Source of the DNA: an uncultured bacterium
Lineage (GTDB): Bacteria > Verrucomicrobiota > Kiritimatiellia > CAIKKV01 > CAIYGI01
Direction: 5' to 3'
Assembly (NCBI GenBank): GCA_903925685.1
Contig: CAIYGI010000041.1
Span: 1 to 32,263 of the forward strand
Length of the DNA: 32,263 nt
A program made the position numbers and the translations under genes. Position 1 is the first letter of the stretch. Every line of letters begins with the position of its first letter. The notes under the pieces are model-generated. The model was not told the origin of the DNA, did no database searches, and saw only the letters and a program-made list of their open reading frames with translations. Of the stretch, positions 22,939 to 25,863 are shown one piece after another.

Positions 22939-23684
22939 GACAAAAAATTATTGCCGGCAACTGGAAGATGAACAAGACCCCTGGCGAATCCGTCGGGCTC
23001 GCCCAGGCGATCAAGGCCGCCTGCGCCAAGGTGCCCAAGGCCAAAGTGGTTGTTTGTCCTCCATTTACGGCGCTGGCGGCGGTTTCCGGCGTGGTGCGGG
23101 GCAGCGCCGTGGCGCTGGGCGCGCAGAACATGCACTGGGAAAAGTCCGGCGCCTATACCGGCGAAGTCTCCGCCGCCATGCTGCTCGATCTGGGTTGCAG
23201 TTACGTGATTCTCGGCCACAGCGAACGGCGCACTTATTTCGGCGAGACGGATGAGATCGTCAATCGCAAGGTCAAAACCGCGCTGGCGGCGGGCTTGATC
23301 CCGATCGTCTGCGTGGGCGAGACGCTGGCCCAGCGCAAGGAGAGCCAGACCGAGTTCGTGGTTAGCGCGCAGATCGTGCATGGTGTGGCCGGGCTGGGCG
23401 CCGATCTGGGCCGCATTGTGGTGGCCTACGAGCCGGTCTGGGCGATCGGAACCGGACTGACGGCGACGCCGGCGCAGGCGCAGGCCGTGCATGCCTTGAT
23501 CCGCGGCAAGCTGACGGAGTTGGGCGGCGCGGCGCTGGCGCAGACGATCGCGATCCAATATGGCGGCAGCATGAAGCCGGACAACGCGCCGGAACTGCTA
23601 TCGCAGACCGATATCGACGGTGGACTGATCGGTGGGGCGGCGCTGGATGCCGTTTCGTTCATGGGTATTGTAAACGCGGTCTGA
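22935..23684 (+). CDS. tpiA: Triosephosphate isomerase
   Basis: The 249-residue protein is complete. It has the N-terminal lysine motif AGNWKMNKT, the catalytic histidine in [12 protein letters not shown], the catalytic glutamate in [13 protein letters not shown], and the phosphate-binding [11 protein letters not shown] with [10 protein letters not shown]. It interconverts dihydroxyacetone phosphate and glyceraldehyde-3-phosphate. The start overlaps the pgk stop as ATGA, indicating translational coupling. Its final 17 codons (23634-23684) recur in diverged form before secG at 25813-25863. The sequence between the two copies interrupts the common tpiA-secG order. Confidence 0.97.
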
Positions 23685-23722
23685 CGCCACGAACTGAAAA
23701 ACCGACGCATTTGGACATGCAA

Positions 23723-24700
23723 ATGACGAAACGGTTTTCCGAAAGAAAAAGACATTTTCTTTTTGGCGCGGCAGTGATTCTTTCAGCGTGTGGAGTCATT
23801 GCTTTGCTCTTGCAAGGTCAAAATACAACTTCAATAAAAGAGCGCATTTTTGAGATAGGGCGGTCTCAGCAAGTTCTTCCATCCGGGATAACGCTTCAGT
23901 CGCTGCTTGAAATGAAGGTTCCGCCGTCGAACTATCTGGATCTGGCCGCCGTCAGTTTTGCGTGTGCTTCGGGTTTGCCAGGCGCGGAAGGGTTTGACGA
24001 GAAAAAGGGTTTTGTCGCTTTGGATAAATGGTCGCGACACATAAAAGCTGAAACTGATAAACGGTACACAAAATATTTTGCGCGCCCCGCCTATTATGAT
24101 AATTCCGTGAACAAGTTCAAAATGATCATGTTGATTCTAACGTTGAAGGAGGACTATGGCGTTGGATATAATATGGAACTTGCCAATTCTAAAACCATGA
24201 CGAATCTCCAAGATCCCTCTTTTTTTCGCGATTCCAAGGATGTCTTCTTGCATGGAACATTAACGGGTGACAAAAAAGGCACCTGCTCTTCTTTGCCGAT
24301 ACTTATTACTGTTTTGGGCCGCCGACTTGACTATCCGCTTCGCCTCGTAACTACGCGTGGACACTTGTATGTACGATGGGATTCGCCAGAGGAACGGTTT
24401 AATATCGAATGTTCGGGCGGAGTTGATTTCTATCCAGACGAGTATTACAAAAACTGGCCCTGTCGTCCGACACAGGCACAGGTTAAAGCCGAACGTTTTT
24501 TTGTGTCATTGATACCTGGCGAGGAAATCGCTTTGCTTATGGAAATCAGAGGGTATTGTCTGGATGCGAACGCGCGGTATCAGGAAGCAACGACAGCATA
24601 CGGCGCTGCCATGAAATGGCGACCTACGTCGCAGAATTTGCCGGTTCTGTTGAGGCGGGTTCAATTGTTAAGCGGAACGAAACAGGGGGTGGCGTCTTGA
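23723..24700 (+). CDS. Membrane-anchored transglutaminase-like protein
   Basis: The protein (325 residues) has a basic start and one transmembrane helix at about 11-30 (HFLFGAAVILSACGVIALLL), so the rest lies outside the cytoplasm. A transglutaminase-like core is visible: the cysteine motif KKGTCSSLPILITVLGRRL (C188), the histidine in TTRGHLYVRWD (H214) and an acidic or polar partner in ERFNIECSG. Such proteins (SirB1/transglutaminase-like) can be cysteine proteases or cross-linking enzymes; activity and substrate are unknown. The last 60 residues resemble one TPR repeat (ANARYQEATTAYGAAMKWRP). The DNA is clearly AT-richer than its neighbours (24 G+C of 60 at 23821-23880). No ribosome site is convincing; ATG 23723, 23717 or TTG 23711 could start it. 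The next gene overlaps its stop (TGATG). Confidence 0.75.
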   Translation: MTKRFSERKRHFLFGAAVILSACGVIALLLQGQNTTSIKERIFEIGRSQQVLPSGITLQSLLEMKVPPSNYLDLAAVSFACASGLPGAEGFDEKKGFVALDKWSRHIKAETDKRYTKYFARPAYYDNSVNKFKMIMLILTLKEDYGVGYNMELANSKTMTNLQDPSFFRDSKDVFLHGTLTGDKKGTCSSLPILITVLGRRLDYPLRLVTTRGHLYVRWDSPEERFNIECSGGVDFYPDEYYKNWPCRPTQAQVKAERFFVSLIPGEEIALLMEIRGYCLDANARYQEATTAYGAAMKWRPTSQNLPVLLRRVQLLSGTKQGVAS

Positions 24701-25158
24701 TGAAAAGGCACATCGTGTTGATTGAAGCGCTGTTGATAGGTTTATCCGCGATTACATGTGGCTACTCGTATTATGCTCCCAATCAGGGGCGTTGGCTTTC
24801 CAGAGATCCGAGAGGGGAAATTGGCAATCGTGTCCTGCCATTGGGGCCAAGAAATGCCGAGGATGAGGAATTCGGTTGTCGTTTGGTGGGCGAGACTGTT
24901 GCTTTCAATAACAATCCCATCTCCTATGTTGATCCTGATGGCAGAATGGCTCGGCTCATCCCTCGACTGATACCAACCCCATCCCTAGGTGGTCCCTATA
25001 TACCGGAAACCCCGTGGCGTTTGATCGCTGATGTGCCTTTTTCACTTGTAACCCGTTATTGCTTCTACGAGAAAACGTTTGGTCATTACTCCGACATGAT
25101 CGGACAAAAGATGTATAAAATTTTCACGGTTGATGGATGTAAAGTGTGCCCGCCGTGA
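24700..25158 (+). CDS. Mini-RHS protein: signal peptide, RHS core, unique tail
   Basis: This 152-residue protein starts with a signal sequence (MKRHIVLIEALLIGLSAITC), possibly lipid-modified or cut near the cysteine. It goes straight into an RHS repeat-associated core: YYAPNQGRWLSRDPRGEIG (about 24-42) and FNNNPISYVDPDGR (about 69-82). In full-size RHS toxins this core closes the shell and precedes a variable toxic tail. Here the shell is missing and the tail is about 70 residues with several cysteines (CFYEKTFGHYSD, VDGCKVCPP). Tiny secreted RHS-core proteins of this kind occur in PVC bacteria, and their role is unknown. The ATG overlaps the preceding stop (TGATG), and its own stop overlaps the next start (GTGA), so the three are translated together. 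GGGGG precedes the ATG by 10 bases. Confidence 0.72.
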   Translation: MKRHIVLIEALLIGLSAITCGYSYYAPNQGRWLSRDPRGEIGNRVLPLGPRNAEDEEFGCRLVGETVAFNNNPISYVDPDGRMARLIPRLIPTPSLGGPYIPETPWRLIADVPFSLVTRYCFYEKTFGHYSDMIGQKMYKIFTVDGCKVCPP

Positions 25159-25676
25159 ACATTCAGAAACTAAAATGGAGGTGTTGGTTGACACTGGGCG
25201 GTCTTTGCGTGATCGCAACCATTATAGTTTGGCATGCAGCAATTCCCTGTTTTTTTGTTGCCCGTTCAATGACGATGTGGCCCTCAATTGCTCCTGGAGA
25301 CGTCGTCTTGATCAAGAAGACAGAAACTCATGATTTGGCACGTTGGTCCGTTGTTGTGTATAAACTTTTCGCCGAATCGAATATTATATCAATTGCCCGC
25401 GTGGTCGGATTACCGTCAGAATCGATCTTGGTGACGGCAAGCAACGTGCTAGTAACCGGAGTTTCCTTTCAACCGCCAGGAACAATCGCCTATCAACACA
25501 ATAGTACTGCCAAGTACGGTGTCGAAGTTCCTGTTTCGATACCGAAAGATTCGCTATTCCTAGTGGCTGACAACTCCGCGCAATCAATTGATAGCAGGAT
25601 GTTAGGCCCCATTACGATATCGCAAGTCGAGGGAAAAGTGATCCATGTGTTTCACCGCCAACCGAATCCAAAATAA
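25155..25676 (+). CDS. Signal peptidase I-like (S26) protein with altered active site
   Basis: The 173-residue protein has an N-terminal transmembrane helix (about 11-32) and the boxes of the S26 signal peptidases. Box B reads SMTMWPSIAPGDVVLIKK where active enzymes have SMxPTLxxGD; the serine position is T40. Box D reads ISIARVVGLPSESI where the catalytic lysine precedes RVVGLPG, but here it is A81. Box E is VADNSAQSIDSRMLGPI (usually GDNRxxSxDSR). So both dyad residues look replaced, and the protein may be inactive, a binder, or use other residues (S38 is close by). GTG 25155 is chosen because it overlaps the stop of the mini-RHS gene (GTGA). It may process, hold or guide the mini-RHS protein, which is inference from position. 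Confidence 0.75.
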   Translation: MNIQKLKWRCWLTLGGLCVIATIIVWHAAIPCFFVARSMTMWPSIAPGDVVLIKKTETHDLARWSVVVYKLFAESNIISIARVVGLPSESILVTASNVLVTGVSFQPPGTIAYQHNSTAKYGVEVPVSIPKDSLFLVADNSAQSIDSRMLGPITISQVEGKVIHVFHRQPNPK

Positions 25677-25812
25677 CTGGCGAGGTGTTGCGAACCGAAT
25701 TGTTGAGGCGAATTGAGAAACTTCGGGTTGGTTGTTGATGTTATGAGGCGGCATGAACCCAGATAGGGGTCGAACTTTTCTCGCACCTTGACATTGATGA
25801 TGTGCTGACGGT

Positions 25813-25863
25813 GAGGCTTTGCTTGACACCGTTTTGTTTGCGAGTATTGTAAAAGCGGTCTGA
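25813..25863 (+). pseudogene. Diverged copy of the 3' end of tpiA
   Basis: This 51-base frame encodes EALLDTVLFASIVKAV and ends in TGA. It aligns without gaps to the end of tpiA ([16 protein letters not shown]), identical at 38 of 51 bases, with weaker similarity a few bases past the stop. It lacks a start and the rest of the gene. It marks the far border of the insert between tpiA and secG. The remaining gene-free sequence 25677-25812 holds nothing else I recognise. Confidence 0.7.

What the first reader, a model, noticed from the sequence alone, without database searches (positions are those of the whole stretch)
23634..25863. Insert between tpiA and secG flanked by two tpiA 3' ends
The order gap-pgk-tpiA-secG is common in bacteria, but here about 2.1 kb of AT-richer DNA with three overlapping genes separates tpiA from secG. 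Right before secG lies a second, diverged end of tpiA (17 codons, 38 of 51 bases identical, same TGA). This is what an element entering the 3' end of tpiA would leave if it brings its own replacement end, as seen for islands in tRNA genes. No recombinase is visible in the insert, so it would be non-autonomous or an old remnant. The divergence suggests the two ends come from different sources, not from a fresh duplication.
Basis: partly seen in the sequence, partly recalled or inferred. Interest (0 to 1): 0.78.

Follow-up and report, generated by a model that had tools for sequence, protein, structure and literature searches.

The report
Mobile effector cassette after tpiA gene
A three-gene mobile cassette, resembling a stripped-down bacterial toxin-and-partner system, has been inserted just behind an essential sugar-metabolism gene, leaving a decayed second copy of that gene's end on its far side.

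Summary
The insertion is real. In the one same-genus genome (G001) tpiA and secG are adjacent, and in all 29 relative loci fetched secG follows tpiA directly; only the window has about 2.06 kb between them (47% GC against 62%). The second tpiA end is not chance and is longer than reported: 117 bp (25747-25863), 69% identical, with gaps and altered conserved residues, so a dead relic. The prediction that relatives' ends resemble the 25813 copy fails: G001 matches the left, working end (116/120), not the relic (85/120).

The cargo: a transglutaminase-like protein (AlphaFold model closest to menin), a short exported-looking protein with only the last RHS-core motif plus a variable tail, and a degenerate signal-peptidase-like protein. 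The first two genes recur side by side in 13 distinct copies, at unrelated sites in other genomes and on IMG/VR contigs with serine recombinase or terminase genes. Tails are nearly all unrelated; two viral copies, 98.5% identical upstream, switch tails at the RHS motif. I read this as a mobile polymorphic-effector cassette of a minimal RHS type. Function is inferred, not shown. How it entered tpiA (gene-end-replacing integrase, or insertion with duplication) is unresolved.

The parts
22935..23684 (+). tpiA, intact; its last 120 bp are the working (left) copy of the duplicated end
   Evidence: 116/120 identical to G001 over the last 120 bp; 94.7% over the gene
23689..25746 (+). inserted DNA, 2058 bp, 47% GC
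   Evidence: absent from G001 and from 29 of 29 fetched relative loci; GC
23723..24700 (+). g1: transglutaminase-like protein with hydrophobic N-terminus (by eye) and TPR-like C-terminus; Cys188, His214, Asn227 kept
   Evidence: Pfam Transglut_core2 19.1 bits, below the 23.5 cut-off; Cys and His invariant in 11 sequences, Asn nearly so; AlphaFold model
24700..25158 (+). g2: short protein with signal-like N-terminus (by eye), last RHS-core motif and a 71-residue tail
   Evidence: NCBIfam Rhs_assc_core E 1.4e-6, 28.7 bits, below the 32.5 cut-off; alignment A3
25155..25676 (+). g3: signal-peptidase-I-like (S26) membrane protein with Thr and Ala at the aligned catalytic Ser and Lys positions
   Evidence: Pfam Peptidase_S26 E 3.7e-19, TIGR02227 3e-25, alignments
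25747..25863 (+). relic of the tpiA 3' end
   Evidence: 69% over 120 columns, three gap columns, random control
25892..26344 (+). secG, native right neighbour
   Evidence: Pfam SecG; synteny with G001

Best explanation
A mobile gene cassette entered the tpiA-secG junction of this lineage. Shown: the empty site in relatives, recurrence of the first two genes at unrelated sites, and their presence beside recombinase, relaxase or terminase genes elsewhere. The cassette looks like a minimal polymorphic-effector system. Gene 1 makes a membrane-anchored, catalytically plausible transglutaminase or cysteine-peptidase-type enzyme. Gene 2 makes an exported protein reduced to the last RHS-core motif plus an exchangeable tail. 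Gene 3, different from copy to copy, would be the tail's partner, here a degenerate signal-peptidase-like membrane protein. Inferred: the enzyme processes, anchors or cross-links the RHS-motif protein at the cell envelope, the tail acts on competitors or on incoming mobile elements, and gene 3 protects the producer. Gene 1 starts 38 bp after tpiA, so the genes may be read from the gap-pgk-tpiA operon (inferred). The 117-bp relic before secG records the entry event: integration at the tpiA 3' end with reconstitution of the gene, or insertion with a long duplication, then decay of the unneeded copy.
For: Empty site in G001 and in 29 of 29 fetched relative loci. g1 followed directly by a mini-RHS gene in 13 distinct copies. 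Cys and His motifs present in 11 of 11 tabulated copies, and only one pair of tails related at E 0.01. Tail switch at the RHS motif between viral copies 98.5% identical over 1443 bp, and a tail plus third-gene pair relocated upstream at 94.5%. Resolvase/Recombinase, Relaxase, Phage_integrase and terminase hits in neighbouring genes. The G001 site of the cassette holds other genes in G000.
Against: No tail was recognised as a toxin in Pfam, PADLOC or PHROGs, and no immunity or delivery was tested. In L069 and L054 the g1 gene is interrupted or partial; G294 shows no RHS motif after g1 before its contig ends; L137 has a truncated g1 with another C-terminus. Window g2 lies below the curated RHS cut-off. 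No recombinase lies in the window's insert. g1 and g3 fall short of full family criteria.
Confidence: 0.5

Rival explanations
1. Entry by an integrase-bearing element that uses the tpiA 3' end as its target and carries a replacement end, as e14 does in icd; integrase and most of the element were later lost.
For: Duplicate of the gene's 3' end at both ends of the insert, with the similarity ending within a few bases of the stop codon and the gene intact. Relatives of the cargo lie beside serine and tyrosine recombinases.
Against: No recombinase in the insert; the left end shows no foreign origin; the ends are only 69% alike; a second tpiA tail was reported for only one of 288 genomes of the class (a protein search that also missed the window's relic); large serine recombinases do not need long gene-end repeats (general knowledge).
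Confidence: 0.35
2. Illegitimate insertion with a long direct duplication of the target, without any replacement end.
For: Left copy is vertical and the right copy is decayed, as expected if the right one is the redundant copy.
Against: Divergence exceeds all 165 windows between the genera-mates, so a duplication after the split would need unusually fast decay; no such duplication was found at the ends of other inserts tested.
Confidence: 0.35
3. The insertion is older than the G000-G001 split, and G001 lost it by recombination or replacement.
For: Relic divergence above the within-genus range; at the four sites where the left end and G001 differ, the relic agrees with G001 three times.
Against: 29 of 29 fetched relatives are empty, so one gain in the window's lineage is simpler; four sites are few.
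Confidence: 0.2
4. The genes are an ordinary envelope or regulatory module of these bacteria, not an effector system; the variable tails are fast-evolving surface parts.
For: No toxin family recognised; third genes include lipoprotein-like and membrane proteins (by eye).
Against: Sharp tail exchange at a fixed motif, relocation of tail plus third gene, presence on viral contigs, patchy distribution: 13 of 387 genomes, weak hits included.
Confidence: 0.3
5. Assembly artefact: two contigs mis-joined.
For: The genome is in 347 contigs and no reads were available.
Against: A mis-join would not create a diverged tpiA end in register with the native spacer and secG; both flanks are syntenic with G001.
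Confidence: 0.03

Closest known systems
Rhs and CDI polymorphic toxins with exchangeable C-terminal tails and orphan modules (PMC3150448, passages seen)
   Same: Constant N-terminal part, tail switch at a conserved motif, a different gene after each tail, relocated tail modules
   Different: The RHS protein is cut down to its last motif with its own signal-like N-terminus, the relocated modules are whole genes, and a transglutaminase-like gene comes first
Inactive transglutaminase domains fused N-terminally to RHS toxins (PMC3482391, section 19 read, other passages seen)
   Same: Transglutaminase-type domain together with RHS sequence and a signal peptide or membrane helix
   Different: Here it is a separate gene, the Cys and His are kept in 11 of 11 copies, and the repeat array is missing
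Element e14 in E. coli icd (PMC2973815, passages seen)
   Same: Insertion at the 3' end of a metabolic gene with a second version of that end; the paper says loss of e14 changes twelve icd positions
   Different: No integrase here, ends only 69% alike, and the working end is the vertical one
Signal peptidase I, Pfam Peptidase_S26
   Same: g3 matches over most of its length
   Different: Thr and Ala at the aligned catalytic Ser and Lys positions; a Ser two residues upstream cannot be excluded as a substitute
Menin (PDB 3u84; PMC10318531, passages seen)
   Same: g1 model aligns over 232 residues, Z 14.8, rmsd 4.2 A
   Different: 9% identity, no sequence link found; the paper calls menin solely eukaryotic and says human menin lacks the catalytic Cys, which g1 keeps

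Membership tests
Polymorphic toxin system of RHS type | RHS-core sequence before a variable C-terminal tail | tested here: met
   Rhs_assc_core found in 5 of 5 mini-RHS proteins scanned, 2 of them above the curated cut-off, the window's g2 below it; only one related pair among 11 tails. The long repeat array is absent
Polymorphic toxin system of RHS type | Tail exchange at a conserved junction | tested here: met
   L131 and L134: identity breaks about 39 codons into g2, at the RHS motif
Polymorphic toxin system of RHS type | Tail is toxic | not testable with these tools
   No toxin family recognised
Polymorphic toxin system of RHS type | Cognate immunity gene next to the tail | tested here: inconclusive
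   A small gene follows each tail and differs between copies; protection not tested
Integrase-type element with replacement gene end | 3' end of the target gene present at both ends, gene intact | tested here: met
Integrase-type element with replacement gene end | Integrase gene in the element | tested here: not met
   Three genes, none a recombinase
Integrase-type element with replacement gene end | Working end differs from relatives' ends | tested here: not met
   116/120 identical to G001, no excess of changes; a near-identical attP end would escape this test
Transglutaminase-like (Transglut_core2) superfamily | Profile match with catalytic Cys and His | tested here: inconclusive
   11 of 11 members match at E up to 1, best 1.2e-8; window g1 is below the gathering score; Cys and His invariant
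Signal peptidase I | Catalytic Ser-Lys pair | tested here: not met
   Thr and Ala at the aligned positions; that Ser and Lys are catalytic is recalled
Menin | Detectable sequence homology to menin | tested here: not met
   No menin family among Pfam matches of 11 members at E up to 1, none among PDB sequences with a profile at E up to 10
Menin | Menin-like overall fold | tested here: inconclusive
   Z 14.8 for a model with pLDDT 78, Foldseek E only 0.066; other Transglut_core2-TPR proteins not compared

The most novel reading that the evidence does not exclude
The insert is one member of an undescribed class of mobile polymorphic effectors, carried next to recombinases by phages and mobilisable elements, in which the large RHS shell is reduced to a single terminal motif and a separate, catalytically intact transglutaminase with a menin-like fold takes over part of its job. 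It would point to a bacterial source for the menin architecture, and here it is hitched to the glycolytic operon by insertion at the end of tpiA.
Probability: 0.3. Interest if true: 0.78.

Novelty: new variant of a known kind. Interest (0 to 1): 0.58.

Why it matters
If true, it shows how small an RHS effector can become, offers a natural set of tail swaps at a fixed motif, and adds a catalytic partner gene that I did not find described for RHS systems. The menin-like fold gives a testable lead on the origin of a human tumour-suppressor architecture. The tpiA relic is a scar of how cargo can enter an essential operon without breaking it.

Tried and rejected
Chance match of the second tpiA end: rejected. 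Fresh duplication: rejected by 27-29% divergence (counts) against a maximum of 22% in 165 windows, mostly coding. Right end as a working foreign end: rejected because conserved residues are changed and the frame shifts, although a third-position excess (17 of 34, P 0.02) leaves a diverged source possible. Right end imported together with secG: no raised divergence early in secG (4 differences in 50 at 25897-25946).

Duplicated gene ends at other insertions: none at the places tested, namely the G001 insert beside secG and two further G001 gaps, the G001 cassette at C66 and the G000 pair at the same site. A 55-bp fragment like part of the upstream glycosyltransferase gene lies beside the G001 cassette (no shuffle control). 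Empty sites for the G064 and G222 copies: the flanks match separate places in relatives or on one side only, so I obtained no clean junction. A doubled tpiA tail elsewhere: 259 of 288 genomes matched, one (G478) with two matches, not inspected; this search did not report the window's own relic, so it is insensitive. Plasmids: one distant transglutaminase. Genome contigs with g1 alone: one locus, L054. The g2 model was too poor to use. Weak g1-profile hits L077, L078 and L079 showed no mini-RHS neighbour; those in G364 and G370 were not inspected. L132 and L138 were not counted (L132 not annotated, L138 cut by its contig end); L133 and L135 are over 99.9% identical to L134 and were not counted apart; L137 was not counted (truncated g1). 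VIA-align looks only at Foldseek's candidates, so families not listed are not excluded.

Literature (open-licence PMC only): searches (2 papers; 4; 53 papers, 20 listed; none each) showed no title or abstract start describing a separate transglutaminase gene paired with short RHS proteins; (6 papers) none on tpiA as an integration site; (232 papers, 10 listed) none on bacterial menin. Apart from PMC3482391 (section 19 and passages), PMC3150448, PMC2973815 and PMC10318531 (passages), I saw listings only.
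Full report
Observation. The two tpiA ends are as described: 38 of 51 bases are identical at the stated coordinates. The right copy is longer than reported: 117 bp (25747-25863) align to the last 120 bp of tpiA at 69%. Its score of 42 exceeds the maximum of 19 in 1000 random sequences and 22 in 221 other window chunks. It has three gap columns that shift the frame, and it alters the DIDGGLIGG stretch, which 24 of the 29 relatives' TpiA printed share exactly (the other five, L019, L021, L025, L028 and L030, differ only in I/V and G/A exchanges). 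It is a dead relic.

Insertion. The window is contig C41 of G000 (4.12 Mb, 347 contigs). TpiA was found in 37 of 39 genomes, G000 included. Twenty-nine relative loci were fetched with flanks, and in all 29 a SecG match lies within about 0.25 kb downstream of tpiA; seven further relatives with TpiA were not fetched. In the only same-genus genome, G001, both flanks align to the window and the junction is empty. The working left end is 116/120 identical to G001, with no excess of changes over the rest of the gene (Fisher P 0.35). The relic is identical to the left end at 83 of 120 columns and to G001 at 85. This contradicts the prediction that relatives would resemble the right copy.

Age of the relic. 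Its divergence of 27-29% without gaps is above all 165 syntenic 100-bp windows between G000 and G001 (mean 8%, maximum 22%). Those windows are mostly coding and so not a neutral yardstick. At the four sites where the left end and G001 differ, the relic agrees with G001 three times and with the left end once. Differences run mostly from GC to AT (21 against 8), with a third-position excess (17 of 34, permutation P 0.02). So the relic is old, or decayed fast, or arrived already diverged. These data do not decide between a displaced host end, a decayed duplicate, and an insertion older than the genus split with loss in G001.

Cargo. g1 (23723-24700) is a transglutaminase-like protein with a hydrophobic N-terminus. 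g2 (24700-25158) carries a signal-like N-terminus (both by eye; no predictor was run) and the final RHS-core motif. g3 (25155-25676) is S26-like, with Thr and Ala where aligned relatives mostly have the catalytic Ser and Lys (the catalytic role is recalled knowledge). Curated cut-offs are missed by g1 (19.1 of 23.5 bits) and g2 (28.7 of 32.5 bits), and passed by g3. The genes overlap by a few bases. GC of the insert is 47% against 62% for the window.

Recurrence. A g1 profile hit 13 of 387 genomes of the phylum, G000, G001 and five weak hits included; g1 itself hit 3 of 17 genomes of the order. g1 is followed directly by a mini-RHS gene in 13 distinct copies: the window, L050, L051, L054, L069, L070, L071, L072, L074, L130, L131, L134 and L136. 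L054 is a Phycisphaerae record; I did not establish whether the window's phylum is a different one. Nine loci came from IMG/VR. Neighbouring genes include large serine recombinases (L071, L130), a relaxase (L071), a tyrosine recombinase (L076, a contig that ends inside g1) and a terminase large subunit (L136). In G000 the site that holds the G001 copy carries a restriction-modification-like pair instead (named by eye). Exceptions: G294 shows no RHS motif before its contig ends, two G254 contigs end inside g1, and g1 is interrupted or partial in L069 and L054.

Tail exchange. In 11 tabulated copies the Cys and His motifs are present in all, and the Asn/Asp motif was matched in 10 (L072 has a variant). 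Only one pair of tails, L130 and L134, is similar at E 0.01, at 36%. L131 and L134 are 98.5% identical over 1443 bp through g1 and about 39 codons of g2, then fall apart at the RHS motif. The tail and third-gene pair of L130 reappears upstream of g1 in L131 at 94.5% over 1648 bp. These are hallmarks of polymorphic toxins as described for CDI and Rhs (PMC3150448, passages). No tail was recognised as a toxin; L069 had one Pfam hit below its cut-off, to a KH domain, and PHROGs gave only families of unknown function for two viral proteins.

Structure. The g1 model (pLDDT 78, pTM 0.76) matches menin best (Z 14.8, 232 residues, rmsd 4.2 A, 9% identity), well above the next entries: TglA 8.7, PNGase 8.5 and a TGase 8.4. 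Foldseek alone gave a best E of 0.066, and no sequence link was found. PMC10318531 (passages) describes menin as solely eukaryotic and human menin as lacking the catalytic Cys. Whether all Transglut_core2-TPR proteins look like this was not tested.

How it may work. The separate transglutaminase-like protein would act on, or anchor, the exported RHS-motif protein; the tail would be the effector and the third gene its partner. PMC3482391 (section 19) describes inactive transglutaminase domains fused to RHS toxins and suggests that they anchor the toxin; here the gene is separate and the Cys and His are kept. All of this is inference from anatomy.

Verdict. A real, lineage-specific insertion of a mobile, polymorphic-effector-like cassette. 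The element class is a new variant of a known kind, and its function is inferred. The gene-end scar is genuine, but its mechanism is open, and the replacement-end reading is only partly supported.

Noticed in passing
L077-L079 (G362, G333, G150): Weak relatives of g1 are longer transglutaminase-TPR proteins without an RHS neighbour; the L077 protein has an extra N-terminal part that looks protease-like by eye.
   Followed up: no
G000 contig C154, locus L089 about 4058-6518, against L050: The same site between a glycosyltransferase gene and its neighbour holds a restriction-modification-like pair in G000 and the g1-g2 cassette in G001, so it may be a cargo hotspot.
   Followed up: partly
L050 reverse complement 6834-6889: A 52-55 bp fragment about 75-81% like an internal part of the upstream glycosyltransferase gene lies beside the G001 cassette; no shuffle control was run on it.
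   Followed up: partly
L050 about 12989-13070: A stretch of about 80 bp recurs at many places in G000 and makes up most of 55 matches, a dispersed repeat.
   Followed up: no
L049 7682-9778: In G001 an MFS-transporter-like gene (by eye) stands between secG and the solute-binding-protein-like gene that touches secG in the window.
   Followed up: partly
L003, between pgk and tpiA: G001 has short tandem repeats of the type TTCTGACTTC in a spacer that is absent in the window, where the end of pgk overlaps the start of tpiA.
   Followed up: no
window 19266-19560: The translation reads like the end of an AbiEi-type antitoxin (from memory), in an area of short, mixed frames; Pfam found nothing at E 0.01.
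   Followed up: partly
L131 4060-5631: A whole mini-RHS gene and its following gene sit upstream of g1, 94.5% identical to the pair that follows g1 in L130.
   Followed up: yes
G254 contigs C101 and C71 (L075, L076): Two contigs of one genome end inside g1, as expected if the gene is present in several near-identical copies that the assembly could not separate.
   Followed up: no
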